DNA of 64,000 nucleotides, taken from Cordylochernes scorpioides (Eukaryota; Arthropoda; Arachnida; Pseudoscorpiones; Chernetidae). This document shows, piece after piece, positions 34,161 to 59,968 of this stretch. The notes under the pieces were generated by a model. The model was given only the letters and a program-made list of their open reading frames with translations. It was not told the DNA's origin and searched no databases. The DNA lies in assembly GCA_030710605.1 (NCBI GenBank), contig CP092863.1, positions 115,820,680-115,884,679 on the forward strand, in the 5' to 3' direction. Position 1 is the first letter of the stretch. Each line of letters begins with the position of its first letter. Made by a program: the position numbers and the translations under genes.

Positions 34161-34472
34161 CTAGTCCTTCGAGTCATACCTTGCAGGCTTTCTGATTACC
34201 CTACCATATCTATTTCTAGAGTCCCTGGATTCAATATTGGGCCTATTTCCTAAAAATCTTAAAACATAGGACATTACCCTGATGTTGAGAGAGTAATTAG
34301 ACCTCCTTGTCAGTAACCAGTCTTTATAATCGATATTCAAATTAATGTTGGTTTTCATAATGTTTTCTTCAACCTTTATTTCTTTTGGATTTATCGAGAA
34401 CTCTGAATTGGGCCAGAATTCTTTAGGTTTTTTCAACCATTCGGGGGCCCTCCCACCATCTGCTTTGCACAA
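34161..34472 (-). pseudogene. BEL-2 Pol tail across the integrase deletion
   Basis: 103 codons. The first part ('EWLKKPKEFWP') belongs just after RNase H. From about 'RPNIESRDSRNRYGRVIRKP' it is the extreme C terminus of a BEL polyprotein. The zinc-binding, D,D-35-E and DUF5641-like regions that should lie between are absent, about 500-600 residues by comparison with BEL-1. Confidence 0.75.
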
Positions 34473-36648: not shown

Positions 36649-36731
36649 GACCTGACCGGTGCAGGCTTGACTAGAAAGCGATGCAATGGGTTCAGGTGCA
36701 TTTTCCTTTAGATTTTCTCTTCCTGGTTTCG

Positions 36732-38027
36732 TTAACGGTTAGAAGAATTTCCTTCACATAAAACTTCTAAGTGGTTTCTCCCACAGTTTTTGCACTCCAA
36801 TTGTTCTCGGCACTGACTCTGTATGTGTCCCTTTCTTAAGCATTTGAAACATAGATGGGCACTACGTATTTTATCATTTCTCTCTCCCGGAGACATTTTC
36901 ATTATGGAGCGGCATTGATGACTCGCATGATTTGTTCTTTCACAAAAGAAGCATTTTATATTAGTTCGCCCTCCGAACAGACTATACACAGTGGCGGGTC
37001 TGAAATTGCTCCTTGTTCTGGTCCCATCATTGTAAGACCTTTTATAGGGTTCCTCCTGCTTAAAGCCTTTTCCCACAAATTTCAGCCGTTGAGCACTCCT
37101 TACTTCGGCTTTTAGAAAGTCCAATAATAACCTGAGCCTTTCTTGAGCTCCTCCAACCCCTTTATCTGACTCTTCCCGTTTTGCTAACTCCATACCATAA
37201 CCCGAAGAAGGATGCCTGTGCCATATTTTCAAAATATCCGAAGGTAATGAAGACTCGACAAGAGGGTATAAAAAAATACCCGACAACTGGGGATCAATGC
37301 CCAATGTCTCTAATGACCGGAGGTGACTGCTCAGTTCGTCGTACAGACTGCTTAAATTTCTATTTTCTTTCTTTACATTAGATATAACCGAATTCAATAG
37401 ACGTCTGACATATAGTTCTGTCAATATATTCGGGTCACCGAATCGCTCCTGTAGGGCTTGTACCGCCAAAACATAGTTGGCGCCTGTAACGGGATAGCTT
37501 GCTACAACACGATAGGCTTCTGAATTTGGTACAATTGCTTGACGCAAATATAAAAACCGATCGCTATCGGATAAATTCTTATTTTCGTGAATTTTCGAAA
37601 ACTGCGCCCACCAAGGCAACCAACATTCCAGAGAGCCATCATAGCTTTTTAGGGCTAACTCTGGTAATTTCACATTTATTACAGTGTCCTCGCTAGCAAT
37701 CGGGATTGTTTCTTCTTTATCGGGATTCCGTAATACACTGACTTTCTGTTGAATGTCAAACTTTTCCTCTTCATATTTATCGCACTCCAACGATTCCCTA
37801 TCAATACTTTCCTCTGTAATCCCTTCTTTCACTACCAATAAAGCCTGATATTTTTCGTTTAGATCTACAAGTTTCGTGTAATAAGACTCTAGTCTATTAA
37901 ACTTAGCATAAATATCATTCCTATCAATTTGAGACTTTTCAAATTCTCCATTTATTTCATTGATAATTCTAGTGAAAGTACCTCTTATGGCTTTTCTGCG
38001 CTTTTTAATTGCATCCATTTCCTCCAT
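36732..38027 (-). CDS. BEL-2 Gag
   Basis: 431 codons from ATG 38027. N-terminal coiled region; DUF1759-type central part ('YDGSLECWLPWWAQFSKIHE'); then 'CFFCERTNHASHQC', 'CFKCLRKGHIQSQC' and 'CKNCGRNHLEVLC', three Cys/His nucleocapsid knuckles. It ends at 36732, 84 bp before the Pol ORF start, in a frame different from Pol. Confidence 0.9.
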   Translation of the reverse strand: MEEMDAIKKRRKAIRGTFTRIINEINGEFEKSQIDRNDIYAKFNRLESYYTKLVDLNEKYQALLVVKEGITEESIDRESLECDKYEEEKFDIQQKVSVLRNPDKEETIPIASEDTVINVKLPELALKSYDGSLECWLPWWAQFSKIHENKNLSDSDRFLYLRQAIVPNSEAYRVVASYPVTGANYVLAVQALQERFGDPNILTELYVRRLLNSVISNVKKENRNLSSLYDELSSHLRSLETLGIDPQLSGIFLYPLVESSLPSDILKIWHRHPSSGYGMELAKREESDKGVGGAQERLRLLLDFLKAEVRSAQRLKFVGKGFKQEEPYKRSYNDGTRTRSNFRPATVYSLFGGRTNIKCFFCERTNHASHQCRSIMKMSPGERNDKIRSAHLCFKCLRKGHIQSQCREQLECKNCGRNHLEVLCEGNSSNR

Positions 38028-38063
38028 ATCTCCTTTAAATCGATCACGTCCGGCTCACCAAAA

Positions 38064-39867: not shown

Positions 39868-42800
39868 GTAATTAAATAAATTTAATTTTCCCGTAGCGTA
39901 TATATTTATATAATTTCTAGGAAACATATGTTTATGGTCCCTCTTATTTACCGCTTCGTGCCAATTTGACAATTTTTAATATGTGGGGGCGAAAGGAAAG
40001 GGGGGAGAGGATAAGCAATGCAAAATATCTTCCTACCTCCTATATTAGCAAAATTGAATAGCTAATTAAATATTTATAATAACGAATATTTATTATATTA
40101 TTTTTTCATATATATTATTAAATATTATTTAAACTCCATTTTTTTTATTGTTGACATTTAAATATAATAATATATTTCTGCAAGCTTGATACCGTATTAT
40201 GATTCAGTAGAGATAAGAAAGAAAAGAAGAAATAATATAATAATAAATAAAAAGAGACACTTCCCATATATATCGGAGAAAATTTTCTTTTTCACTGTGG
40301 TGGTACATGGCTAAAAGTACACCTGGTACAAGCCAGGATATTCATGGTGGGTAGTTAAACAACCGCTTTTAATGTAAGTACATCACATTTCTACACATGT
40401 GGAAAGCAATTCAACTTTTGCACTTACAAGTGTCCCAGATCTCTTTTTGGTGGGGTTGGATTTTTCAAGAATCAGGGGTTATTGGAACATTTTTTTTTAA
40501 TTAGAAAAAAGTGCCCAATGTGGGATTTAATCCTGGATCATAGTGGTCAAAGACCAATGGTTTAGACTATGGATCCATCAATCCCCCTAAAATAAAATCT
40601 TATTTTTAAAACAGAGTGTATGACGTGGCAGATTTTTCAAGGAGTCTGACCTAAAGGAAGGTGTTCCGGAAGCCAGAGCTATCTTATTGGATACCGAACC
40701 TAAGGTAACCATCATGGTTTCATCATTATTTTAGTTATCAACATGTGAAAAATTAAGAAAAAATAAGAAAAAATCATCAGTTGTTGTTGATACAGTAGAA
40801 CCTCTCTGTAAAGGATATCTAGTTTCAGAGCCAAAGTGTCTTTTAGGGAGAAGTGTCCTCTTACCGGAGATGTTAAATAGTAAAAATGGTAATTTCGGGT
40901 ATGAAAACTGTCTTTTATAGAGAGGTGTCCTCTAGCGGGAGTGTCCTCTCATGGAGGTTCTACTGTACCAAAATAAAAAAAAAAGATATATCCTGATTGT
41001 TCATATGAGAATTTATATGGTGTATATATGGTAGCCTTGTAATGTTCAACCTGCAACCCCAAAACACATTATTGACTGTATTGACTCATCTATTGATGAG
41101 CTCTACTCTTCACCGGAAGACACCATCAAAAGTCTCAAACTTTACAGGCTTGATACCTTAATATGATTGAGTGGAGATAAGAAAGAAGAAGATATGGTAG
41201 CATGCCCAGAAGTCCAACCCCTCCTCTACGTGGCGGACAAGAGAAGCAGCACAAGTAAGGGACTGCCCTGTAGGGCGAACTACAGTGTCGTGAGCCCCAA
41301 GCTGCTATGGTAATTGTGAATAGGGAACTCTGAAATGTGGCTGACTAACGGGAAAATGGCACCCCCCTCATTCCATGGAGCAACAAAAACCACCACATAT
41401 ATATGGTAGAGCGCCATCTATTGGAACAAAAATTAACCAAATGTTGATTTAGGCTTATTCCTTAATATTTGGTCAAACCAATTTTTGATAAATCATTCCG
41501 AAACACATTTGTGGTTGGCTTCTCTTTGATATATCAAGAAAAGGAGTTGACTAAATATTCTGGAACAAGTCTAAATCAATGTTTAGTTGATTTTTGTTTC
41601 ACTAGATGGCATTCTGTCATCATTTGAGCAGTCAGGATATGTCTTTATTGTTTTAAAAAATAATCATCATATAGTAAAGCCATCTTCTGATCAGAGGTCC
41701 GTCTTTGCCGGTCCCAAGCCTGGATGAAAAAGGAAGAGGGGGAGCAGTAACAAGCTCGCTAAAAAACCTGGGCTCAGCTGGCCCGGCTGATAGTACCCTG
41801 TAAGGGCTCCTAATCCAGGAATACAGGATGGGCAGTGTTTGTACTCCATGTTAAGAGTGTCTGCACATGGCGTCTGTTCCTCATGTCAGAGGCAGCCATT
41901 TCTTTTGGAGCTAAGTCGGCCTGCTACTGAGAAGTGCTCCCAGTCTTAATGACAAAGGCAGACACATTCTACTTCACACAGTCATGATGGTTCTCAAACA
42001 AGCTTGATACCCTAATATGATTGAGTGGAGATAAGAAAGAAGAAGGTCAGTTATTATGTAACATCATTTTACTCTGTTTTGACAAAATCTCTATTTTCTA
42101 ATTCTAGACCAATCTATTAGAGTATTGAATCAAATTGGTCTCTTCCTTCATTCTTCAGAGTGTTTCCCACCTCCTGTATGGTCAATAGATGAAAGTGGTT
42201 ATTGAGCCTTTAACTCAAATTTATAAATAGATCATTCCTAGTATATATGATGTTCTCTTCACATATTATAGAATTAAAGAGAAAAAGTCCCAATTGTATA
42301 CACTCATGAATAAAACTTAAGGAAGTTGTACCTTTTAGCATGTATATCGGGATTCAGACAATAACTCTGAAGATACACTCATGGACAAAACTTAAGGAAG
42401 TTGTACCTTTTAGCATGTATATCGGGATTCAGACAATAACTCTGAAAGATACACTCGTGGACAAAACTTAAAGAAGTTGTACCTTTTAGCATGTATATCG
42501 GGATTCAGACAATAACTCTGAAAGATACTCTCATGGACAAAACTTAAAGAAGTTGTACCTTTTAGCATGCATATTGGAATTCAGATTATAACTCTGAAAG
42601 ATATTACAGTGACCTTTATTGAAGACACACGAGATAACCAGGTGTAAATAGCCTCTGTCTCTTTCAAAAAAAAATAAAATAAAATAAAATAAATGACCGG
42701 CGATATCAAAGACTTTCAACTTCCTTAAGGCCATTAGTATATTTCTCCCCCATCATCCACACGATTGGGTGAATTCTCCTCAATTATAAGAGATGGATCT

Positions 42801-45800
42801 GGAAGGAAAGGATGTTCTTGTAGACTTTGTAGAATAGATATATTTGCATCTTGTGTAAATACATCATTTACATATCTCCCCATGTTTCTATATTGGTGTG
42901 TTTTTTTATGTAAATATATTATGGCGAGGGTTCATCTCTTTCAGATATACATTCTAATCACCTTCTTTTTGGAGAACTTGTTCATTTTCTTAATAAAAAA
43001 AAAAAAAAAATGTGTAGTCATTAAAAGAAAAAAAATCAACTTAATAAAATCTTTTATAATTGATTCAGTACTTCTGTCTGATGATGGTAACAATGCTGTT
43101 ACCGAAACATCACACACTATTTTATTTGGATTTGGTCTCATATTACCTTGTGTTTCTTTCTAATCTATAATCCAAAATGTGTCTTATCATTGTGTTCTTC
43201 TTCTTTTATTTTTGTTGTCACTTGAGTTTAGTACACTGCTATTGTAAAAATCCAATAAGGATAAAGGACTGTGTGTGCCAGGTGGTGACCATGCAGCTAG
43301 CAAAAGGCAATGGATGGCTCTATTCAGCGGGTCGCTCCTCTATCCAGCGACAGGGTGCAGCCAACAACTGGGCCTGCGGGTATTACCGCTGCCAGACCCA
43401 GTGGAAAGAGAAAGTGCGAGAGCTGGTCAGAAAGGAAGTCGAGGATTGTGATTGGTTGGAAGGATTCTTTCCCCTGATGTCATTGGCTGGAGGAACAGGG
43501 AGTGGGTTGGGCTCCATGGTTACAGAGACCCTCCGGGAGGATTACCCTCGCACCCCCATCCTGAATCATGTAAGTTCCTGGGACCATCTCAACACATCTA
43601 TTTACACTAGAAATGAAAGTTATTTGAGTACAAGTGTTTCTTTTCATACAAATCAAACTTCTACTGTCCTGACTGTGATGAAAAAATATTGGGAGGGCTT
43701 GGATCATCAGTAGTAAAATACTTTTCATATTGAAGATAACTTTAAAAAGTATGAGAAGAGTTGAAATGAAGGAGGCACCAATGCCTTTAAGGTGGGGAAT
43801 CAATTAAATTGTTGTCAATTGTCTAAGGTGGGGATGCCTCTATTGCTGAAGACATTTGTACATATACAACTGTTTTTTTTTTTTTTGCTTATCCCTAGTA
43901 CACGTGGTACAGGCCATGATAATCATGGTGGGTAGAAGTAGGCGACTGCTTTTACTGTAGGCGCATCACATGTCTACACATGTGAAAAGCAGTTCGACTT
44001 TGTACTTACAAATTTGCCAGAGCCCTGTTTGGTTACTTGCACTCGCTGGTGGGGTTGGACTTTTGCAAGAATCGGGGACCATTGGAGCATTTTTTTTTTT
44101 AAACAGAAAAAAGTGTCCAATGCGGGATACGAACCCGGGTCGTAGTGGTCGAAAACCAATGGTTTAACCAGCCTTCCACCGACCCCCCCATATACAACTG
44201 TATATAAGGAATGAAAGTATTTAAACACAAATGTTTCTTTTTCACATAAAACAAATTTCTACTATCCTTACTGTGCTGAAAAAATATTGGGAGGGGGCTT
44301 GGCTCATCAGTGGTAAACCCTTCCAGTGGTTTCGCTAATTTAATCTACCAGACTGCTTCTCTTGGAGTTTTAATACTGTATTGGACAATTCTGCTTATAT
44401 ATGCTGCACTGAAGGGTGGAATCTCATAAATGGTATTCAGGCAAAACTATGAACATAAGCTTTTAGAACAGTAGAATTACATATAACATACTAGAATTTC
44501 AATCTACAGTTGAACTTTGTTATAACAACATCGGCTGATACATGGGAATTTTTCCCTAGGCGAGAGATCTATAAAATGAAAGGTCACCTCTCCCATCAAA
44601 ATAGGTTACAAAACTAAGCATCTCTGCAAACATCCAGGACTGATGAAGGCCCCATTTGTCCCAAACTATGGTCTCCAGGTTAGCCTTCAGAGTTTACCAA
44701 AGTTTTTAGGAGAAGTGCCTAAATAGTTTAAAATTTTCGGGGGGTCGGTGGAAGGCTGGTTAAACCGTTTGGTTTTCGACCACTACGACCTGGGTTCGAT
44801 TCCCGCATTGGACACTTTTTACTGTTAAAAAAAATGCTCCAATGGCCCCTGATTCTGGCAAAAGTCCAACCCCACCAGCAAGTGCAAGTAACCAAACGGG
44901 GCTCTGGCACATTTGTAAGTGCAAAGTCGAACTGCTTTTCACATGTGTAGACATGTGGTGCGCTTACAGTAAAAGCAGTCGCTAACTACCCACCATGATT
45001 ATCATGGCTTTGAGATAAGAAAGAAGAAGAAAATTTTCAATAGAAAGATGGTGCATTTATATATCGTGTAAATATAAACTCAGTTTGATTCTTCAGTGGA
45101 GGCATTCCTCCTCAATTATAAGAGTTCATCGAATCCTTTGACAGTTGTTTATTTGCCTTCTCTTCCAGTTTTTAATACTCAAAGCCAATTCTATTGACAC
45201 AAGTCTCTCCATTTCTTTTCCAGCTTTTGATCAAATATTTTATTTGGCAACACTAGACAAATGACCTGTCTTTGCGGTGGTATGCAAAAGAATAAACAGA
45301 ATATAAGAAAAGGAAGCATTAAAGCACGAATATTTATTTTAAACATAAAATAAACAGAATATGTAAATTAGTCCATTATCAAATTAATTTGCATATCCCA
45401 GAGTTGGAACTGTGACTCCTACTGATCTAACTCATTTTAAAGTTTTCATCTCAATGTAAATTTGAGTAAAATTAATCATTACTCCAAGGAAAAGGGAATT
45501 TTCTCTGTAGAGATATGATTAATGTTACTCAATATTGATGAAAGCAGAGAGAATTATCATAGATTTAACTATTTTTGTAGATATATTTATGATTATTTAA
45601 TTAAAAAGGCATATATTGTATCAAAAAATTATTTATTTTACCAATATTTCAGTTGGCTGAATGCCAACCTTTATACCTTATAACCTTGATAAAGGTTGGC
45701 GTTCAGCCAACTGAAATATTGGTAAAATAAATTATTTTTTGATCCAATATATACCTTTTTAATTAAAGATTTATTTATGGATTGCTCTATTTTAAAAATT

Positions 45801-48800
45801 TATGATTATCTTTCTAACCTGAAAGGTTCAGGTTCATAATATATATTATTGTTTCTCTTTTTTTAATAATTTTTGATTACTTTTTCTTGTCTAATATGTT
45901 TATAACTGTTTCTGTTTAAAAAAATGTAAATTGATGCAATTATCCCTAGCCGGGATATCACATTTTGTGTGTTGAAATAAATATTGATGATTATTGTATA
46001 GAATTGTCAATTTGTAAACATTGTGATACCAGTAAGTACAGTGCTGTGTTTCCAGGTGGTCTGCCCATTCTACCAGGGGGAGGTGAGTGTACAGAGCTAC
46101 AATGTGGTTATGTCAGCGGCCAGTCTCACCACTTCAGCTGACGGCCTGGTAATCCTGGAGAATGACCAGCTCTTACGGGTCATTACGCAGCGCCTAGGTG
46201 TGCGTGATGCCTGCATGAACGACCTGAACACTCTAGCGGCTCAGCAGATGGCATCTCTCTATCTCCCAGCCTGCCTGCCAACTTCCCACTTCTCTTCCAC
46301 CCTAGGTAGCCATTCTTGTAACCCCATATATTATGGACCAAAACATTATGGTATAGTCACAAGGTAATAAGACCAAATCCAAATAAATAAATAGTGTGTG
46401 ACGTTTCGGTAACAGCGTTGCTACCATCTTCAAACAAAAGTACTGAATAAGATATTTTACCACAGCATGTTTTAATAAATTATTGTTATCAAGTATGTAA
46501 ACAAGATAACAGTAACTATTTAAAACATGCTGTGGTAAAATATCTTATTTAGTACTTTTGTCTGAAGATGGTAGTAACACTGTTACCAAAACGTCACACA
46601 CTATTTATTTATTTGGATTTGGTCTTATTACCTTGTGTTTATAATCTATAATCCAAATTGTGCCATATCATTTTGGTATAGTAAAACCCTGCTAAAATGA
46701 ACCTGGGATATAGCGAACCTATCGGAGTTCACTATTGAAGGGTTTTATTAGGGGGGGGTTCAATTTGGGTTTTAGATTAGAAACACAAGGTAAAATAAGA
46801 CCAAATCTCCAAATAAATAAATAGTGTGTGATGTGTGTAGTGTGTTATTACCATCATCAGACAAAAGTATTGAATGAGAAAAAATATCACAAAATGTTCT
46901 TTAAATAGTTACTGTTATCAAGTTATCTTGTTATCAAGTGTGTCACATTTCTACCTACGTTTATCACATGCTGCGATATTTTTCTCATTCAAGACTTTTG
47001 TCTGATGATGGTAACAATGCTGTTACTGAAACGTCACACACTATTTATTTATTTGGTCTTATTACCTTTGGTTTTTTTAATCTATAATCCATACTGTGCC
47101 TTATCATTATAATTAACAAATATAATCAATATTAATAAAAATCATTCCCTTATTAATCAGGACACCTCTAGGACCAGCTATATTGGTTGTCAAATTCACA
47201 ATTCCCATCTGATGTCCATCTTCAATCAGGGTTGGACATTGAGGTGGTCCACAAGAATTCATGAAAAATATTTCAAAACTACTAAATGAATGTGGTAAAG
47301 TTGCTATGACAATTCTCTGGCCGATATATAGCTGGAGTTTGTTATAGATGAAGTCTATTTTGTCCATGAGTATATACAGTTAAACCTGTCTATAGCGCCC
47401 CCTCTTGGGACTCACCAAAATAGGGTGCTATAGAGAGGGGGTGCTATAGACAAGTCACTTTAAATGTAAATCGTATCGTACTACGTATTTAAAATCGGGT
47501 GCTATAGAGAGGAAGGCGCTATTTAGAGGGTGCGCTATAGACAGGTTTAATTGTATATATATATATATTAAAAATAAAGAAGGCATCTCCTGACCACGAG
47601 CACATGTGCTTTTTAGATGGCAGAGCGCCATCTAGTGGAGCAAAAATAAACTAAACGTTTATTTAGCTTGCTCCGAGATATTTGGCCAACCCAATTTCTT
47701 GATAAATCAAGAAAAGCCATCCACGAACGCGTTTCGCGCTGTTGGCGCTCGTCAGCGTGGAGAAGGCTGTAACCACTGCGACCAAAAATATTTTTGGTCC
47801 CAATGGTTTCCCGAAAAATCAAGAAATGTATATATACATATACAGTAAAACCCCGCTAATACGAACCCTGGATATAGCGAACTTTCCCTTATGACGAACC
47901 CACGGCGATTCCCGATTCCATTCCATTGAAAATACCATCGTTATAACGAACTTTGCAATTTTTAAAATAACGAACTACCCCTATAACGAACCTATTTTCG
48001 ATCCCAAAATGATAAAATCTATTTAAAATACTATGCTTATAACGAACTTAAAATTGTGATTTAAAAGATTTTTAAAACAACAAAATTTTGAGCATGTTTC
48101 AGTTCACGGATCGTGATTTCAAAACAAAAAATTAGCGCCATTGTTTGTTTTCATTTCCATTCTATTTTTGCTGTATGTTGTATAAATTTTTACACATTAT
48201 ACTTTTATTTAATAGAATATCTTTGCATTCGAAAATTTTGAAATAAAAGAAAAATACAAATGGCTTCCAAAATAAAGAAAAGAAACAAAGAATGGCATTC
48301 TAAAAAAAACAAAAAAAAACAGTGGCAGCATGCCCTTTTAGAAGCGTTCTATATCAAGTTTAACCTAGGCTAAAACATAATTCCAAATAATTTTAAAGCC
48401 AGAAATGGTTTGAATATAACAGGTTAAAAACAAAATTTAATATACACTTCAGAAGAATATGTGGAAACTGGAATGGGAAGAAGAAGAAAAAAAAAAATAG
48501 TTCTTCCAAGTTCCCCGTGTCTCATGAGCCACAAACAAATCGACTTATAAATTCTCAAAAACTACCACTACAGTTCTATTTTTAGAATGGAATTCTTGTT
48601 AGGTATATGACTCATTCAGGGTTCGCGGTTATTCCCCCTTGCCGTCCTTTTCCCTACCGATTTGGTGTTTGCAAATTGGCGTTTTTTATTCGCAAATTTA
48701 CTGATCGCGCTATCGTATCAACATGTTTCGCGTCCGATTTTTCTGAATTGGATACTTTTGATTCATCCTCAATTGATTTAGAATACACAGAACTTTATTT

Positions 48801-51800
48801 ATTTGATGGAAATAACGATATTTTAAGACAATTCTGATTTTTAAATTTTACTTTTCATTTTCAAACAACAAGGTATTAGAGGCATTTTTTCAAATAAATT
48901 TAGTATTATATTATTTGAGGAAGATGTTCTAAAATACTCTTATACCTTTTAAATATATAATTAATAATGTTTTGCCTAGGGGATTTGACATAGTTTTTAA
49001 ATAATACATAGGTTTATATATAAACATGTATGCTAATGATAAGAAGAACCTATTATCAAATGACTTCTTTTGATATTCAGCATTACTGTAAAGAAATAGG
49101 TCAATTTAGGGAATTAAAACAAAGTGACCATTATTAAGTGGCTGTCTTTTCCTGTTTGTATGGCTGTTTTTTAATTATATGGTCTAAAAATTTAGAAAAG
49201 TTTAAAAAAATGGCCAAACCGTGGCTATAGTGAACCAAAAGCTCTGTCCCATTGGGGTTCACTATAGAGGGGTTTTACTGTATATATATATTAAAAATAA
49301 AGAAGGCATTTCCTGACCACAAGCCCATGTGCTTTTTAGATGGCAAAGCGCCATCTAGTGGAGCAAAAATAAACTAAACGTTTATTTAACTTGCTCCGTG
49401 ATATTTGGCCAACCCAATTTCTTGATAAATCAAGAAAAGCCACCAACGAATGCGTTTCGCGCTGTTGGCGCTTGTCAGCATGGAGCAGGCTGTACCACTT
49501 CGACCAAAACGATTTTTGTTCCCAGAGGCTTCTTGAGAAATCAAGAAATGGGTATTTAAGGCCAAATTTGCGTAAATACGCTTAACACATGAAAAAATAA
49601 TAGAAAAAAAAAAAGATAAGTGGGTCAGATGTTGATATTAAAAATAAAGAAGGCATTTCCTGACCACGAGCACATGTGCTTTTTAGATGGCAGAGCGCCA
49701 TCTAGTGGAGTAATATATTTATATTCACATTCCCATAAAAAAAAACCTCAATCCTAGTGAGATAGGCTAAAATTTGTCACTGCGCAGGAGACATTCTGGC
49801 CCACTGCGTGCCCCATCCCCAGTACAAACTGCTAGGGCTGCGCATGGTGCCCCAGGAACCTGTTGCCTCCAGGCCCTTCTCCACTCTGGCTTGGACGTCT
49901 CTGGTGCGCAGCCTGCGCCGAATGTTGCTCTATGGAGCTACAATGGATGGAGGTTTGTATATAGCTTCCTCTTGAACCACTAAGGTGATCATCTTGAAAT
50001 TTCTTGGAAGAAAATATGTAAATTGTTCAAGCTGTTAGAAGTTATGTATGCAAATTCCTTATTGTAAAAAGTATTTTTTAAATTAGATTTATTTGCATAT
50101 CTGAAGAATGTATATAGAATTTTTTTTCTCTTCAGTTAGTTGCTGGTGAAGTGTAGATGAGTGTGTAGCAATGTATAATCAATAATTTTGTAGGATAATA
50201 GGACTTTTTGATTTTCTTTAAAAGGCAAGATAAAAAATCTCTGCACAACAACATATCTTAACTGGCCTCACGTCAGTTCCTTCTATATAGGCTTTTTTTT
50301 TTTAAAAGAGTTTGTTACATTTTTTTTGGATAGAGATATACCCCAAAGTTATTAGTATTTTGATATAGTACAAATATGATTATAATACCCTTGGCAGAGC
50401 TGAATGCTACAGGGCACGTCCCCAGGTGGCGGATAGGGGAACAACCTTCAGATATGAAGGCCAGCTGTGAAACAAGCAGAATAACTCTGACGAATAAGCA
50501 GTCGCGAACCAACATCAGCATTGTTAGAAAGAGGAGAAAAACCTCTTTAAACAACTGACTTGGTTGATAGACCTCAGCAAAGGTTCCTCTCTAGATATAC
50601 GGAGGAGCTGTGTCTGTACTCATGTTAGAGTTGGCAGCAAAGGCTTCCATGTTAGGAATGGCCTCAAATTACAGTCAGACTTTCACCAAAGTGTACCTGG
50701 ATCATGGTGCCATGATCAATGAAAGCTGCACTCCTATACCCCAATTTCATGGAATTCGTGCAATATTTATGCAAGGGGATAAGAAACAACAGCAACAGGA
50801 TTATAATAAGAGATATAAAAGGTAGTAAGATCAAATAATTAAATAGTATGTGACATTTTGGTAACAGCATTGTTACCATCATCAGATAGTCATATATACA
50901 TAAAGTCGGTGGACGAGTGGGTAACACCCTCGATTCCCGACAGTCATGAACCTCCCGGTTCCCGCGTTGAATCCCACGTTAACATTTTGTTTAATATGTG
51001 AATAACCTTCACATATTATTCACTGTTTCAATTATCATGAACTAGGTTGCTCTTGTTGAGCGGTACCTATTAATGTGATTTTGAACCAGATAGTCATATA
51101 GTCTTTTGCCTAAGTTTAACAATACTGTTATCAAAATGTCACACACTATTTATATTTTTTGGATTTGGTCTTATTACCTTTTATTATTAGTATTTTCTTT
51201 AAACCAATCCTCTCTACAAGCTTATTCACGATGGCAATGCGCCATCTGTGTGTACAGGATGATTGTAAATGAAACATACAGGATCACTAGAGATCTTTGT
51301 TCAACTTGTTTTATTTATGATAAGGTACAATTATAGATTATAAACACAAGGTAATAAGACCAAATCCAAATAAATAAATAAATAGTGTGTGACGTTTCGG
51401 TAACAGTGTTGTTACCATCTTCAGACAAAAATAACTGAATGAGAAATTTTACCACAGTATGGTTTAAATAGTTACTGTTATCAAGTTTGTAAACAAGATA
51501 GATTTATAGATATGCTTTTAATTATATCTAAAAAAAAAGTGGGTTTTTCCACTTTTAATTCTAAGAACAATTATCTGTATTTCTCAGAAAATTATCTTCT
51601 TCTTATCTGCTATCTTGTTTGCGTACTTGATAACAGTAACTATTTAAACCATGCTGTGGTAAAATTTCTCATTCAGTACTTTTGACTGAAGATGGTAACA
51701 ACGCTGTTACCGAAATGTCACACACTATTTATTTATTTGGATTTGGTCTTATTACCTTGTGTTTGTTTTATTTACCTTACTTCATTACAGTAGGTAAATC

Positions 51801-54800
51801 AATCAAACAAGAGAAACTGTCCAACATGGTGTAAACAAGGAACCTGGTTTCCTCCGATTGGTTGATCTTTCACCAGTACAAGCTGGCTTACATCCTATCT
51901 ACATATTGGTCATTTTAACCTTTATGAATCCTATGTCTCCTTTACTTTTGATGTCACCATAATAATAATAAATAATTGAATCATTGGGTTTTAGAACACC
52001 AATTCAATAATGACCAATGAAGAGATTTAAAGGAGAAAACAGCAAGAAATTGTTGTTATGGAGAGATATATATTTACCTTTTTTAAAAGAAGATCTTCAT
52101 TAAAATCAATAAGACTTCTTGTTATCCTAAAAAAATATTTATTACACATAGCTTCCACACTCATTTACACTTAGCAAGCAACTCAAAGAAACATCTATTC
52201 TCCACATACAATTTTTTTTTATATATACAAAACATCTAATAAAAAAAAAATCTTTTTTACAAAAATAAATTTGCATACACAACTTCTAAATTAAACAGCT
52301 AGAACAATCTTTTCTCTTAGGAATTTCTAAGATGATCACCTACAACAGAAATGGATATTTTCCTGCTTAATAAATTCTGCAAACTTGAAACTGGGATATG
52401 CAGGGGTCAGAGATGCTTGCCAAATGATTCTGCCAATGGACAGGGGGTTATGTAAAAATATTTCCAAAAAAATTTACTTGAATAAAGGAAGCTTTCGGGC
52501 AAGCCCTTCTTCAGCTAAATATATATATTTTTTGCTTATCCCTAGTACACATAGTATAGACCATGATAATTATGGTGGGTAGAAGTAGGGGACTACTTTT
52601 ACTGTAAGTGCACCACATGTCTACACATGTGAAAAGCAGTTCGACTTTGCACGCTAACTAAAATGATTTAGTTGATTGAAGAAGAGTTTGCCCGAAAGCT
52701 TCCTTTAATCAAGTAAATAAAAATATTATTTAAAATAAAAAGACACTTCGGCCAGAAAAACAATTTTCTGGCCGAAGTGTCTTTTATTTTGAAGAACTAT
52801 GAATGCGCTGGCCAGGCAACCTCTTATCTTCAAGAAAAATAGAGTTGTGGCATCTTATGATAAGATAAGATTATGTTCAGTGAACTGTTTTAAAATGGAA
52901 GCCAAAAAAATGCTCCAATGGCCTCCCATTCTTGCAAAAGTCCAACCCCACCAGCGAGTGCAAGTAACCAAACAGGGCTCTGGCACATTTGTAAGTGCAA
53001 AAGTCGAACTGCTTTACACATATGTAGACATGTGGTGCACTTACACTAAAAGCAGTCGCCTACTTCTACTCACCATGATTATCATGGTTTGTACCACGTG
53101 TACTAGGGATAAGCAAAAAAAAAAAAAAAGAATGGCAGCCAGTTTTAAACCTTATTAAAGTTTGTCTTAACATAGGGAATTTTAACTTGTTGCACACAGG
53201 CAACCAAAATTTTTCAAGAATAAATAAACCTAATGATGAGCCAGGCCCTCCCTTTAATTTTTACATTGCTGTAAGGGCAGTAGAAGTTGTTTAATTTTCA
53301 AAAGAATCATACGCGTCTATAATAGTTTCGAATATTCAAAACCTAAAATTGTTTCTCGAAGTAATAGAATAAATCTATTGTTAAGATTTTCCATTACATA
53401 ATAAGGAAATTAAGCCTTTCCTATAATACAAAAATACTAAATAAGTAATATGCAAATATTTCATAGATACAACTCGGATATAAATTTGTTTGTTTAGAGT
53501 ACAAATAGAATGGCAACAAATTAAAATATTTTTAATATACAGTAGAACTACCCCCTGCAAAAGACAACATCTAGTTACAGAGCCAAAGTGTCCTTTAGAG
53601 TGAGGTGTCCTCTTACTGGAGAGTTGTTAATTGGTAAAAAAAAAGGTTATTTTGAAGATGGAAACTATCCTTTATAAAGATGTCCTCTAGTGAGACTGTC
53701 CTCTCGTAGAGGTTTTACTGTAGAGAGGTGTCCTCTAGTGAGACTGTCCTCTCGTAGAGGTTTTACTGTAGAGAGGTGTCCTCTAGTGAGACTGTCCTCT
53801 CGTAGAGGTTTTACTGTAGAGAGGTGTCCTCTAGCGAGACTGTCCTCTCGTAGAGGTTTTACTGTAGAGAGGTGTCCTCTAGCGAGAGTGTCCTCTCATA
53901 GAAATTCTACTCTATTACAAAAAAAAAAAAATTCCTAGAAATAAAACTGCAATTTTAAAAAGTTAATATAGAATTTGGATGGTTATAACAAAGTTCCACC
54001 GTAGGTGTGTCTCTATGTTGGTCTGTGTGGGTTCAGGAGACTGCGGGACGAATGTCCCAAAATCTTACCAGGTGTCTCTCTTGGCTGTGCTGAGAGGTCC
54101 GGATATAAGTCAGGCTGACCTGGAGCCACTCCAGAAACTGTACTTCACCTCGTGGGGGTCGGGATTCAAGACTTGGAGTGCTCCCGGACCTACGTTTGGG
54201 ATGGACAAGTGTGCCGTGGTGGCAACTAACAGTCCGCCTGTAATTTCTCCCTTCCGTATGGCACTGGGTGGGTATTGTTGTTGTTGTGCTTTGGTTGGTA
54301 GCTTAAGTAACCCTATATATGTTCTCTATTTTTCTGGGAGGATATTGATCTAAAGAGACAAGGGTCGCCTCTCCCGTCAAAATAGATGTCAAAACCAGAC
54401 GCCATCTATTGACCGTTGCTGCAAACTAGCGGCCTCGGGTCGATGACAAAGCCACAACACCAGCTTTGGCAAACTGAGAAACACCCACCTAGAGACCATG
54501 GGTTTTGGGCTAATGGCTGTCGTCAGCCTAGGGCGGACTTTATTCCATGAGATCTACACGGGATCTAATGGAATCTAGTTTGCGGCGGCGGTCAATCGAT
54601 GGAGTCTAGTTTTGACGTCTATTTTGACGGGAGAGGTGACCCTTGTCTCTTTAGTTTTCTATTTTGTTGCTGCATTCTTTAATCCTTTGTTATTTCTCTT
54701 TTTTTAAAAAGAAGCTTGAAAATTTGTAAAAATCAAATATAAATAGACTCATAGAGACAAAACTTAAGGAAGTTTTTACTTTTTATCATGTATATCAGGA

Positions 54801-56137: not shown

Positions 56138-59100
56138 TTACACGAATTCCATGAGTTCATGCTCCTCGAGCTGTTTTATGATGAGCAGCGGCCTCTCCCA
56201 AAGGTCCTGTTTAGTGCATCTAATGCAAGCCAAAATGTGTTCTGGAGCTGCAGGTACCAAATTACATTTTGGGCAAGTGGGATAAATTTTGTTATTATTT
56301 TCTATCTTCAATGGCTTGAGATGGCCTGTTCTAAATCTTGTTAGTGTTGTTTGATGCTGTCTATTTCTGATCTTCAGAGCTCCTCCTGGGTTCACTCCAC
56401 TGTACCAACTGTGCTTAGGTGGGATCCTCCAGTTCTTGTTTATTTTTGTTTTGGCTATTGTTTCTATTTCTTTAAAAGTAAGTTTATTTTTCTGTGGCAA
56501 GGGTTCTTTTGTGCCTTTTTTCGCTAGCACATCAGCAGCTTCATTGCCTTCAATGCCAACGTGTGAGGGTATCCATTGAAGGTGAATTTTTGAGGTTTTT
56601 GAGAGTTTTTGGAGATAACCAATTATGTTCCTGCTTACTTTGTCTCTGAGTTCCCCTGTGTGACTCAAGTGTTGTATGGCACTTCTACTATCAGTAAGAA
56701 TCCAGATATCTTGATAATTAGTATTTCTGATGGATTTTAAGGCTTCATAGATGGCTATAAGTTCTGATCTGAAGACTGAGCAAAAATCTGGGTTTCTTCT
56801 GTTCATTTTCTCAATGCCATTTGTGGTTTTGATGAGACAGCCACTGCCAGTGTGTCCTAGCTCGTCTCTGCTACCATCGGTATAGATAGTTATTGCATTT
56901 TTAGGAATGTTATTAATTATTTCTAATGATAATTGTTTTAAGTATTCTGGATTTTGGTATTGTTTGTTGGTGGGTTCTTTTAAAGTGGCATTAAAAATAA
57001 CATTTTGTAGTGGTTTGCATGGAGAAATTTTTTCTGCTAAATAATTTTTTTCCACTTTATATTTTAAAAATTCATTTCTTTTGGCCAGGTGTAGAGGGCC
57101 TTCTTTTTTGAGTCTTAAATTGGATTCCCAATTAAGTATGTACTTGGAAGTTCTGTGTTTGTTTCCATAACTCTTGATTTTGTTTATATATTTTGGCAGA
57201 TTGTAGCTTCTTCTATCCTTTAGGGGCATAATGTCTGCCTCGTAAAGTACAATATCATTAGGGCAGGTATTTCGAAGACCTGTAATAATTCTAGCTGCAC
57301 TTAGTTGTATCCTTTCCAGTGATTTTAGATTTGTTTCAGATGCTGTACCATAGATTTGATATCCATATTCCAGGATAGGTCTAATTAGAGATGTGTAAGT
57401 TAAATTTAGTGTGGTTGCATCGGCTCCCCACTCTCTTCCTGAAATATATTTCAGGATTTTTAGTCGGTCTCTTCCTTTTCTAATAACTTCTTCAATATGT
57501 TTACTGGAGTTAATTTCTGGATCCAGAGTGTAGCCAAGATATTTAGGATGTTTATTATATTGCAATTGTTGTTCTTTCAGAATAATTTTTGGTCTTATTT
57601 TGTATAGTTTCTTATCAGTAGTAAAAAGACAGGTTTCAGATTTTTGGGGGTTAAATTCTAATTTATGTTTATTAGCAAATTTTTCTAGGTGGAAAAGAGT
57701 CTTGTTCAAATCTCTTTCAGCTTTTTTCCAGTTAGTATTGCTGCTCCATAGAATAATGTCATCAGCGAAAAGTCCAATATTGGTTTTATGTGAAATTTTT
57801 TCTTCTATGCCTGCAATAAATAGGGTGAAGAGAGTTGGGCTAAGGACTGATCCTTGTGGTAATCCTTGGTACAATTTGAAGGTTTTAGATAGAGTGCCAT
57901 TATATTTGACCCTGATGTATCTATTTTTAAGGAAATCATTTATCCAAGTGATAGCTTTTCCATCAATTTTGAAATTTTTGTATAATTTTGTAATTAACTT
58001 GTTTTTCCATACCTTATCAAAAGCTTGTGTAAGGTCTAAAAAAGCAGCTATTGTGTGGTTAGTTTGTTTTCTGTTTTGTGCATCTTTTACCTTTTGTGTG
58101 AAAAATAAGAGTTGGTCTATTGTCCCATGTCCTTTCCTAAATCCATATTGTTCTTCTGGTAAGAGATTTCTTGTGTCAAGGTGGTAGGTAAGTCGTCTGA
58201 GTATAATTTTTTCCATTAATTTGCAGCAAATACTTGTGAGGGAGATAGGTCGGTAGTTTTTTGGGTCATCAGCAGATTTGTCAAGTTTTTTAATAGGAAT
58301 TATTGTTGCAATTTTCCAGTCTTGAGGCAATTTTCCAGTTTTCCAGGAGTTATTGAAAATATCAAGAAGTTTTTCTTTGCCATTTTTGCCCAAGTTTGAT
58401 ATCATTTGGCCATGGATTCCATCTGGCCCAGGAGTCTTGTTCAGGTCAGTGTTTTCTAATGCATAATCTAGCTCTTTCATATTGATTTTTTCATGGAAAA
58501 TATTATGAGTGCTAGTGACGTTTTTACAGTCATGGATAATCTTGCGGGCCTTTTTTTCAACTTTCTTATCTTTTATTTCAAATTTGATTTTACTACTTAT
58601 TTGATATGAATTACCTAAAAGATTAGCAGCATTTTTGTCATTAGTTGCTGGGGTACCATCTATATTCTTAATCATATTTGTGTTTTCAGTTTGTGGCTGG
58701 GCTCTGTCAATTTGTTTTGCCAAATGCCAAAGTTTTGTATTTGGGTTTCTTGGGTTCAGGTTTTCACAAGTTTGTTTCCATTTTTCCCTTTTCATATTTA
58801 CGTATAATCTTTTTATTTTTGCATTCACAATGTTCAGTTCAGTTCTACAATTTGTTTGGTTTTGGGTGTACTTTTTTTGTAGTTCATTTCTTTTAGTTAT
58901 AAGTGTTTGAATATCTTTTGCCTGGTGTGTATAATTTGGAATCCATTTCTTAATATTACCTCTTGGTATTGAAACTTTGGCTGCTTTAATAATGGTGTTT
59001 TTGAAAGATATCCAATTTTGCTCCATATCTTTTATTCTAGTGGGTGCTTTTCTAAAGTCTTCATTGGTGTTTTGCTGGTAAAGATTCCAATTAGCCTTTT

Positions 59101-59734
59101 TGAAGTTCCAGAATTTTTCTTTAAATGAGCTGGTTTTGGTCTTTGTGCTAATTTCTATCAAAATAGGCAAATGATCACTTCCAATACTTTTTAATATTTG
59201 CCATTTGCATTTGTGGAAAATGTCAGGACTGGAGAAACTTATATCAAGGGCTTGTGCGGTATTATAACTGTAGGAATGGTGGGTAGGATTCCCATCATCT
59301 AAGCACATGAAGGCATTGTCGTCAAATAAGTTTGAAAGTATTTTGCCTCTTGGGTTTGGCGTGGAACATCCCCATAGTTGATGTTTGGCATTAAGGTCAC
59401 CTACAATAATAGTGTTGTCTGTAAGAAATTGAGCCATTGTTCCATCGTCAATAAGTTTATTGTTTGGTGGGTGATACATATTGAATATGTTGATGGTTTT
59501 GTTTTGATTGAGGTAGACTTTGATACCTTGGGCTTCGAGGTCTGATGTGTTTGAAATATTAATAGCTATATCTTCATAGTACAAATTCTTGATTAAAAAT
59601 GCAAGGCCACCCCCTTCTTTATTTCTGTCTTTTCTGAGGATATTGTAGTTTTTATATTTGAGATTGTACTTTTCATTTAATTTGGTTTCCTGTAGGGCTA
59701 TAATTTGTATCTTTTGTTTTTCAGCTATTTCCAT
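56138..59734 (-). CDS. LINE ORF2: endonuclease, reverse transcriptase, RNase H
   Basis: About 1,199 codons from the ATG at 59734. The frame is open upstream to 59830 but that part is the inverted 3'-end copy. AP endonuclease with 'IIALQETKLNEKY', 'IIVGDLNAKHQLWG' and 'GSDHLPI'. RT with 'KTPGPDGIHGQMI', 'AFLDLTQAFDKVW', 'GLPQGSVLSPTLFTLF' and catalytic 'FADDIILW'. RNase H with 'TIYTDGSRD', 'ELIAIYEALK', 'LTDSRSAIQHL' and 'WIPSHVGIEGNEAADVLAKK'. A C-terminal Cys/His cluster 'CPKCNLVPAAPEHILACIRC'. All catalytic residues look present, so the enzyme could be functional. Confidence 0.9.
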   Translation of the reverse strand: MEIAEKQKIQIIALQETKLNEKYNLKYKNYNILRKDRNKEGGGLAFLIKNLYYEDIAINISNTSDLEAQGIKVYLNQNKTINIFNMYHPPNNKLIDDGTMAQFLTDNTIIVGDLNAKHQLWGCSTPNPRGKILSNLFDDNAFMCLDDGNPTHHSYSYNTAQALDISFSSPDIFHKCKWQILKSIGSDHLPILIEISTKTKTSSFKEKFWNFKKANWNLYQQNTNEDFRKAPTRIKDMEQNWISFKNTIIKAAKVSIPRGNIKKWIPNYTHQAKDIQTLITKRNELQKKYTQNQTNCRTELNIVNAKIKRLYVNMKREKWKQTCENLNPRNPNTKLWHLAKQIDRAQPQTENTNMIKNIDGTPATNDKNAANLLGNSYQISSKIKFEIKDKKVEKKARKIIHDCKNVTSTHNIFHEKINMKELDYALENTDLNKTPGPDGIHGQMISNLGKNGKEKLLDIFNNSWKTGKLPQDWKIATIIPIKKLDKSADDPKNYRPISLTSICCKLMEKIILRRLTYHLDTRNLLPEEQYGFRKGHGTIDQLLFFTQKVKDAQNRKQTNHTIAAFLDLTQAFDKVWKNKLITKLYKNFKIDGKAITWINDFLKNRYIRVKYNGTLSKTFKLYQGLPQGSVLSPTLFTLFIAGIEEKISHKTNIGLFADDIILWSSNTNWKKAERDLNKTLFHLEKFANKHKLEFNPQKSETCLFTTDKKLYKIRPKIILKEQQLQYNKHPKYLGYTLDPEINSSKHIEEVIRKGRDRLKILKYISGREWGADATTLNLTYTSLIRPILEYGYQIYGTASETNLKSLERIQLSAARIITGLRNTCPNDIVLYEADIMPLKDRRSYNLPKYINKIKSYGNKHRTSKYILNWESNLRLKKEGPLHLAKRNEFLKYKVEKNYLAEKISPCKPLQNVIFNATLKEPTNKQYQNPEYLKQLSLEIINNIPKNAITIYTDGSRDELGHTGSGCLIKTTNGIEKMNRRNPDFCSVFRSELIAIYEALKSIRNTNYQDIWILTDSRSAIQHLSHTGELRDKVSRNIIGYLQKLSKTSKIHLQWIPSHVGIEGNEAADVLAKKGTKEPLPQKNKLTFKEIETIAKTKINKNWRIPPKHSWYSGVNPGGALKIRNRQHQTTLTRFRTGHLKPLKIENNNKIYPTCPKCNLVPAAPEHILACIRCTKQDLWERPLLIIKQLEEHELMEFV

Positions 59735-59744
59735 TATAGAGCAC

Positions 59745-59840
59745 ATTCTGACTTGTATTAGATGTACTAAACAGGACCTTTGGGAGAGGCTGCTGCTTAT
59801 CATAAAACAGCTCAAGGAGCATGGACTCATGGAATTATTA
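59745..59840 (+). repeat. Inverted LINE 3'-end fragment at the 5' end of the LINE
   Basis: 'ggacctttgggagaggctgc' and 'aaaacagctcaaggagcatg' on the plus strand repeat the end of ORF2 in reverse orientation to the element that follows. Confidence 0.75.
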
Positions 59841-59841
59841 T

Positions 59842-59968
59842 TCAGTACTTTTGTCTGAAGATGGTAACAACGCTGTTACTGAAATGTCACACACTATTTA
59901 TTTATTTGGATTTGGTCTTATTACCTTGTGTTTATAATCTATAATCCAAATTGTACCTTATCATGGAA
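59842..59968 (+). repeat. Family A right arm
   Basis: 'ttcagtacttttgtctgaag', hairpin GGTAAC-AACGCT-GTTACT, 'gaaatgtcacacac', then the full outer arm to 'aattgtaccttatcat'. The LINE fragment resumes after it ('ggaattcatgtaatcttt', 59965-59990), with the break at 'catggaatt'. So this A arm is inserted into the LINE 3' end, possibly with a duplication of 'atggaatt'. Confidence 0.7.

What the first reader, a model, noticed from the sequence alone, without database searches (positions are those of the whole stretch)
47567..49712. Retrozyme-like tandem repeat with a complete type I hammerhead
Seen: three direct copies of a family D unit (about 348 bp between copies 2 and 3), no ORF, and in copy 1 a minus-strand motif that satisfies every invariant hammerhead position (CUGACGA at 47755-47749, stem II GCGC/GCGC, GAA, palindrome ACGCGU, then U). 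Stem I pairs over 6 + 3 bp. Known: short type I hammerheads that work as dimers occur in metazoan retrozymes and Penelope-like elements, in tandem units of a few hundred bp. Inference: this array is such an element, transcribed from the minus strand and able to yield unit-length circular RNAs. The pogo element that splits the array implies that the array is the older of the two.
Basis: partly seen in the sequence, partly recalled or inferred. Interest (0 to 1): 0.82.

Follow-up and report, generated by a model that had tools for sequence, protein, structure and literature searches.

The report
Arthropod retrozyme with Penelope-type insertion footprint
The repeat is a tiny non-coding mobile element of an arthropod that carries a conserved hammerhead ribozyme motif, and its insertions bear the same two-ended scar as those of Penelope retrotransposons, which points to the enzyme that probably moves it.

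Summary
The hammerhead is real: it matches Rfam HH9 (28 bits, below the gathering score), and an older subfamily keeps it with compensatory changes. The 349-nt unit looks like a retrozyme: no ORF, 40% G+C, a strongly self-paired predicted circle, thousands of candidate copies. The "array" is wrong in part: copy 1 (98% to a reference unit) and copies 2-3 (copy 2: 91%) are separate insertions beside a pogo-like element.

The main result lies outside the finding. Of 48 mapped spans 25 are head-to-head pairs with RNA 3' ends outward. In 22 both ends lie at one of two sites about 46 nt apart, away from the ribozyme cut, and 21 have one arm from each site (the exception is a rearranged duplicate). 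Targets are AT-rich, with duplications of about 13 nt where legible. Penelope-type inserts in the window show a similar unequal pair in 4 of 7 cases, 3 unassignable. This resembles the published Penelope signature. I infer mobilisation by Penelope machinery, both broken strands priming on retrozyme RNA; no partner element, RNA or activity was shown.

The parts
47565..47836 (-). retrozyme copy 1: one 5'-truncated unit, RNA 3' end at start site A on the left, truncated near unit position 78-84 on the right
   Evidence: 98% to reference unit L013:3825-4173
47706..47775 (-). type I hammerhead with intact core; core 47755-47749, predicted cut between 47726 and 47725
47843..49280 (.). pogo/Tigger-like DNA element, inverted ends CAGTAAAACCCC.../...GGGGTTTTACTG flanked by TA; lies between two separate retrozyme insertions
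   Evidence: the name rests on a recalled end motif, no transposase tested
49288..49634 (-). retrozyme copy 2: full 347-nt unit, more diverged
   Evidence: 91% to the reference unit
49408..49507 (-). decayed hammerhead of copy 2 (core CTGACAA, stem III ACGCAT)
49589..49634 (-). 'tail' region of copy 2, about unit positions 1-46, between RT start sites A (349|1) and B (44-48)
   Evidence: sites defined on genome copies
49635..49713 (-). retrozyme copy 3: partial unit, positions 271-349
41395..41660 (.). old, decayed head-to-head retrozyme insertion of the same family
   Evidence: 29.9 bits, E 6.8e-5 at 41455-41551 +; the two arms were read by eye
46345..46676 (.). Penelope-type head-to-head insert with minimal hammerhead-like core; left arm the shorter (A) type, right arm the longer (B) type
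46761..47108 (.). second Penelope-type head-to-head insert, left arm end not assignable, right arm B type

Best explanation
This is a metazoan retrozyme: a non-coding, non-autonomous retroelement of about 349 nt. Its minus-strand RNA carries a type I hammerhead that cuts multimeric transcripts into unit-length RNAs, probably acting as a dimer because stem III is a palindrome; host ligase then closes them into circles (inferred from the family, not shown here). The circle, or an uncut multimer, is copied into AT-rich DNA by the GIY-YIG endonuclease/reverse transcriptase of a Penelope-like element. The DNA is cut with staggered 3' overhangs of about 13 nt. One overhang primes at site A and the other at site B, about 46 nt apart in the RNA. 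The two cDNAs grow toward each other, often past one full unit, and are joined head to head. Shown: hammerhead conservation with covariation, two-site head-to-head ends, target duplications in a few legible cases, agreement of variants between the two arms, and a similar unequal architecture in Penelope-type inserts of the same window. Inferred: RNA cleavage, circularity, one RNA molecule per insertion, and the identity of the enzyme.
For: Hammerhead: HH9, E 3.6e-5; 57 of 67 copies with intact core; 25 sequences, 94.1% of cells paired against 25-48% when slid, 5 pairs with changes on both sides. Retrozyme features: 349-nt unit, 40% G+C, no ORF, circular fold z -8.3 with both start sites in an open stretch; thousands of candidates. 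Integration: of 75 outward ends 46 score as A, 24 as B and 5 as neither (two of the A ends are decayed B ends, three are junctions with another repeat); 25 of 48 spans are head-to-head, 22 have both ends at A or B and 21 are one A and one B; 18 of 42 arms in 21 non-duplicate head-to-head pairs exceed 355 nt; duplications of 13-15 nt in L023, L025, L027, L041, L044 and, nearly (TA)n, L040; arm-to-arm agreement 130 of 146 against 2608 of 3910 between insertions, 0 of 2000 permutations as high. Penelope link: 146 GIY-YIG matches among 150 scored of 17,015 candidates; minimal hammerheads downstream in 4 of 8 loci fetched; unequal head-to-head pairs in 4 of 7 cases in the window. In print: Penelope RT starts at two adjacent internal RNA sites at AT-rich targets on both strands (PMC11167929); tail on one of the inverted pLTRs, 9-bp duplication (PMC3846280).
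Against: No sequence homology to the Penelope 3' regions held (five: L050, L052, L054, L055, L049+L057; AT-rich matches only), so the partner is unidentified. The published Anolis enzyme starts RT without homology to the target, whereas here ends show short microhomology (ATAT at A, CAT at B). Three of seven Penelope pairs in the window are not assignable, and the A-type ends of the other four are read partly by eye. Some retrozyme pairs have an end at neither site (L015, L030, L031, the second span of L045). The search returns only the best-scoring copies, so the sample is of young copies. Many duplications lie in (TA)n; shuffled flanks reach the same score in 19%. RNAalifold prefers a different fold. 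No transcript or cleavage data.
Confidence: 0.72

Rival explanations
1. The unit is not a retrozyme in its own right but the pLTR, or a non-autonomous derivative, of one particular Penelope element that has lost its ORF; hammerhead, tail and ends are inherited from that element.
For: Same order of parts (hammerhead, then start sites) and similar insertion architecture to Penelope elements (PMC11167929).
Against: The hammerhead has a stem I internal loop and a palindromic stem III, while the Penelope hammerheads seen in this genome are minimal, GAAACGUC or GAAACGUU without stem III. No homologous Penelope 3' region among the five held, which is a small part of the Penelope elements here.
Confidence: 0.2
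2. A retrozyme mobilised by a LINE-type reverse transcriptase; the inverted pairs come from twin priming.
For: Duplications of about 13 nt fit LINE-like integration; a LINE with a 1245-aa open frame lies in the window.
Against: Twin priming leaves one RNA 3' end per insertion (recalled); here both outer ends are RNA 3' ends, one at each of two sites. No poly(A) at the RNA 3' ends read.
Confidence: 0.08
3. A fold-back DNA element or satellite with inverted ends; the hammerhead is incidental.
For: Inverted ends and AT-rich targets.
Against: Ends are not identical terminal repeats but differ by the tail in 21 of 22 scorable pairs, arms are truncated at variable points and run past one unit; the hammerhead shows covariation.
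Confidence: 0.03
4. The hammerhead-like motif is a chance match in an ordinary repeat.
For: Below the Rfam gathering score; monomer fold z only -0.81; the bare core pattern is not rare.
Against: E 3.6e-5 in the local search, conserved core in 57 of 67 copies, compensatory changes in an older subfamily.
Confidence: 0.03

Closest known systems
Metazoan non-LTR retrozymes (mussel, coral, axolotl; PMC7229834)
   Same: Non-coding units of 170-400 nt with a type I hammerhead, G+C under 50%, target duplications longer than 4 bp, many copies, strongly self-paired predicted circle; weak palindromic stem III as in axolotl HHR_Amex1
   Different: About half of the mapped spans are head-to-head pairs with two fixed start sites; that paper's main text holds no 'inverted', 'head-to-head' or 'orientation' (supplements not seen). 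Expression and activity not tested here.
Penelope-like elements (Poseidon of Anolis, PMC11167929; Adineta Penelope, PMC3846280)
   Same: Head-to-head inverted ends, tail of 30-46 nt on one arm, AT-rich target, two adjacent internal RT start sites, hammerhead upstream of the start sites
   Different: No ORF; fuller hammerhead; microhomology at the start sites; no sequence homology to the five Penelope 3' regions held
Rfam Hammerhead_HH9 (RF02275)
   Same: Type I hammerhead architecture with outer stem I helix after an internal loop
   Different: 28 bits against a gathering score of 52; not a member by Rfam's own cut-off
Amphibian satellite hammerheads (newt, salamander), as described in PMC7229834
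   Same: About 330-350 bp unit, stem III of one pair with a palindromic loop, expected to act as a dimer
   Different: Arthropod host, no sequence comparison made; activity not tested

Membership tests
metazoan retrozyme | type I hammerhead with intact catalytic core | tested here: met
   (by sequence and covariation)
metazoan retrozyme | non-coding unit of about 170-400 nt, G+C under 50% | tested here: met
   349 nt, 40% G+C, longest open run 81 aa
metazoan retrozyme | occurs as direct tandem units | tested here: met
   direct tandems exist (L010, L011, L028, L040), there as arms of head-to-head pairs
metazoan retrozyme | no LTR, PBS or PPT; target duplications over 4 bp | tested here: inconclusive
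   duplications of 13-15 nt in six more or less legible cases of 30; absence of LTR features by inspection only
metazoan retrozyme | loop 1-loop 2 tertiary contact in the hammerhead | not testable with these tools
   an internal loop in stem I and a 5-nt loop II are present
metazoan retrozyme | expressed as self-cleaved linear and circular RNA | not testable with these tools
   no RNA data; only a predicted self-paired circle
Penelope-like element | ORF with reverse transcriptase and GIY-YIG endonuclease | tested here: not met
   no ORF in the unit
Penelope-like element | head-to-head ends with a tail on one arm | tested here: met
   21 of 22 scorable pairs
Penelope-like element | minimal hammerhead without stem III | tested here: not met
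   stem III is an A-U pair with a palindromic CGCG loop
Rfam Hammerhead_HH9 | score at or above the gathering threshold (52 bits) | tested here: not met
   28 bits

The most novel reading that the evidence does not exclude
Every insertion is made by two reverse transcriptions at once on one and the same circular retrozyme RNA: the two 3' overhangs of a staggered break are held by a Penelope RT dimer at two docking sites about 46 nt apart in the open end-loop of the circle, which would explain why each site is used exactly once. Animal retrozymes would then be parasites of Penelope elements, as Alu is of L1, recognised through RNA shape rather than shared sequence.
Probability: 0.38. Interest if true: 0.78.

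Novelty: new member of a known kind. Interest (0 to 1): 0.58.

Why it matters
Retrozymes are widespread in animals and make abundant circular RNAs (PMC7229834), but which enzyme moves them is open: that paper calls Penelope elements 'a strong candidate' from co-occurrence, tandem copies and shared hammerheads. Insertion scars with one arm from each of two fixed start sites are physical evidence for a Penelope-type reaction on a retrozyme RNA, and they can be tested with the already purified Anolis Penelope protein (PMC11167929). They also bear on how Penelope elements integrate, since the one-of-each rule suggests that both strands of one break are extended in one event.

Tried and rejected
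Rejected: one array split by pogo (copy 1 lacks unit positions 77-1 and is less diverged). Rejected: fold-back DNA element (unequal ends). Tried without result: sequence homology between the unit and Penelope 3' regions; a run-off signature at the ribozyme cut (five arms end at unit positions 186, 187, 187, 192 and 197, none at 189; not a formal test); insect odorant-binding proteins to place the host (no match, uninformative by the tool's own control; cuticle proteins do show an arthropod); a rotated-unit search whose ~50-nt side pieces are, I judge, edges of the tool's scored stretches, so it gave no arm structures; the 321-nt query for the second hammerhead family, dominated by another repeat; telomere motifs at two contig starts, none. 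Against my reading: RNAalifold prefers another fold for the hammerhead alignment; monomer folds are unremarkable for copy 1, for the old copy L017 and for window 18850-18915.

Full report
What is there. On the minus strand of 47706-47775 the window holds a complete type I hammerhead motif: stem I of six pairs plus an outer helix after a small internal loop, core CUGACGA, stem II GCGC/GCGC with a five-base loop, GAAA, a palindromic ACGCGU and U at the cleavage position 47726. Nothing reaches an Rfam gathering score in the window; with relaxed thresholds Hammerhead_HH9 matches with 28 bits, E 3.6e-5 locally and 0.0042 in 34 kb. Copy 2 (49288-49634) carries a decayed version.

The window lies in a 2.62-Gb genome of 24 contigs. 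The host is an arthropod: 150 of 150 scored chitin-binding cuticle matches (333 candidates) exceed the family cut-off. A search with copy 1 gave 99 matches from 40 scored of 2000 candidates; a search with an old copy (L017:5771-5997) gave 4449 candidates, 40 scored, the others at 84-89% identity. Counts are lower bounds and the scored copies are the best-matching ones.

Hammerhead conservation. In the 38 loci L009-L046 and the window, 57 of 67 hammerhead regions keep the full core; duplicated loci are included. These copies are mostly young, so this alone says little. The older subfamily is more telling: across 25 sequences (window copies 1 and 2, three old copies in held loci, 20 fetched pieces) 94.1% of cells form standard pairs, against 25-48% when partners are slid, and five pairs show changes on both sides, including C-G to G-C in stem II and U-A to A-U in stem I. 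RNAalifold's own consensus on this alignment is a different fold, and a single monomer does not fold unusually well, which fits a ribozyme that works as a dimer but does not prove it.

Not one array. Copy 1 covers unit positions 349 to 78 and is 98% identical to a reference unit (L013:3825-4173); copy 2 is a 347-nt unit at 91% and copy 3 a 79-nt piece. Positions 77-1 are missing between copy 1 and the pogo-like element at 47843-49280, so copies 1 and 2 are separate insertions, differently diverged, in the (TA)n flanks of that element.

Insertion anatomy. In 38 genomic loci and the window (L046 is an inverted duplicate of the window region), 48 element spans were mapped with the reference unit. 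Twenty-five are head-to-head pairs: two arms in opposite orientation with RNA 3' ends outward and 5' ends joined in the middle. Of 75 outward ends, 46 score as A (position 343-349...UUUUUAAUAU), 24 as B (position 43-48...UUUUUUCAU) and 5 as neither. Among the A ends, two outside the scored pairs are decayed B ends (L020:1544, L028:3146) and three at position 346 (two in L010, one in L019) are junctions with another repeat. The ribozyme cut at 188|189 is not an end. Of 22 pairs with both ends at A or B, 21 are one A and one B and one is A/A. The A/A case, L010, is a rearranged relative of L011 whose far end at L010:7420-7465 is of type B. L010/L011, L012/L013 and L020/L045 look like duplicates by their flanks and structure; without L010, L013 and L045, 19 A/B pairs remain. 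Three of the 25 pairs have an end at neither site (L030, L031, second span of L045). Three compound spans, left out of the strict count, read as A/B by hand (L028, L038, L039); a fourth, L015, does not (right arm ends at position 289). Some spans are single arms (for example L018, L032, L042, L044 and both window insertions), mostly with an A end. In 21 non-duplicate pairs 18 of 42 arms exceed 355 nt, so the template was circular or multimeric and uncut at the ribozyme site when copied.

Targets are AT-rich, often (TA)n. Legible duplications of 13-15 nt are seen in L023, L025, L027, L041 and L044 and, nearly (TA)n, in L040; over 30 insertions (one duplicate included) 15 reach a score of 12, against 19% for shuffled flanks, and four have no match at all. 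At ten subfamily sites in 26 insertions (duplicates L010, L013, L045 dropped) the two arms agree in 130 of 146 comparisons, against 2608 of 3910 between insertions, and 0 of 2000 permutations reach this. This is consistent with one template sequence per insertion; it does not prove one molecule.

Penelope comparison. The genome is rich in GIY-YIG domains of Penelope kind: 146 matches among 150 scored of 17,015 candidates, some in open frames of up to 828 aa. Of eight 1-kb pieces downstream of such matches, four carry minimal hammerheads ending GAAACGUC or GAAACGUU (L050, L052, L054, L055), one has lost its end (L053) and three are still open throughout (L049, L051, L056), of which one was extended (L057). 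In the window a repeat with a minimal hammerhead-like core forms seven head-to-head pairs. In four (2568/2842, 26788/26930, 46345/46543, 51317/51667) one arm stops at alignment position 98-113 (94-98 by eye) and the other at 128-134; three pairs are not assignable. I call this repeat Penelope-type from its hammerhead and architecture; an ORF linked to it was not shown.

Literature. PMC11167929 (text parts 1-3 of 4 read) reports that purified Anolis Penelope protein cuts and extends both strands at AT-rich DNA and starts reverse transcription at two adjacent internal RNA sites that define the 'tail'; it also found that hammerhead mutants do not affect insertion in vitro. PMC3846280 (passages seen) describes inverted pLTRs, a 31-bp tail on one of them and a 9-bp duplication, and explains head-to-head pairs by self-priming on an antisense template, which differs from my reading. 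PMC7229834 (results parts 1-2 of 3, discussion, term search) defines metazoan retrozymes and names Penelope elements as a strong candidate for their mobilisation; PMC7761336 (passages) says much the same. My searches (listings with starts of abstracts) and term searches in two papers showed no description of head-to-head retrozyme insertions or of two start sites in retrozymes; subscription papers, bioRxiv and supplements were not searched.

Mechanism. The best account is that retrozyme RNA, cleaved by its hammerhead and probably circularised, is taken by Penelope RT/endonuclease, and that the two 3' overhangs of a staggered break prime at A and B. The predicted circle of the reference unit is strongly self-paired (MFE -111.8 against a mean of -72.6 in 100 shuffles, z -8.3); positions 337-349 and 1-5 around A are unpaired, and of positions 16-45 before B only one pair is formed. 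No homologous Penelope 3' region was found among the five held, so recognition would have to rest on shape or on a partner not yet seen.

Noticed in passing
window 18818-18918 (-) and 54453-54556 (-); also L037:2938-3038, L044:232-331, L038:3296-3397, L027:2753-2858: A second, different hammerhead-bearing family, for example in L037 CUGACGA GGGC CAUCA GCCC GAAA CCAUGG UC with stem I CUGGA/UCCAG; stem I varies with apparent compensation (GGA/UCC against GUA/UAC) in L038 and L027. Found with model R1; window copies score 23.6-25 bits, E 0.001-0.003; Rfam gives nothing relevant at 18700-19050; two genomic copies fold well (z -2.4 and -3.3), the window copy does not.
   Followed up: partly
window 17106-17273 (+) and 52741-52782: A solo Penelope 3' region with a decayed hammerhead core, and a tiny head-to-head pair of the end motif TGGCCGAAGTGTCT that Rfam scores as a miRNA (MIR395) below its gathering score.
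   Followed up: partly
window 46409-46586 (-): Rfam's best relaxed match in 30-64 kb (MIR6140, 71.7 bits, half its gathering score) lies on a head-to-head Penelope-type insert and is probably not a miRNA.
   Followed up: partly
window around 47567-49712 and C1:115941700-115948200 (L046): The region has an inverted duplicate about 75 kb away, 99% over the 500 bases searched, and the repeat at 18.6 kb has one at 93%: a possible large inverted duplication.
   Followed up: no
L010:5319-6022 and 6716-7419: A ~704-bp segment that interrupts the array and occurs twice, with retrozyme units between its copies: apparently a tandem duplication inside the array. A similar CTAG-ending repeat abuts the unit at the same position 346 in L019.
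   Followed up: no
window 9452-12198 (+), 20117-25300 (+), 34423-38054 (-), 56138-59875 (-), 43171-43713 (+): Reverse transcriptase, RNase H and integrase pieces; two Pao/BEL elements, one with a 1727-aa open frame; a LINE with a 1245-aa frame; a tubulin fragment.
   Followed up: no
window 47625-47639 (-): The unit contains CCACTAGATGGCGC on its RNA strand, which resembles the CTCF consensus as I recall it; not tested.
   Followed up: no
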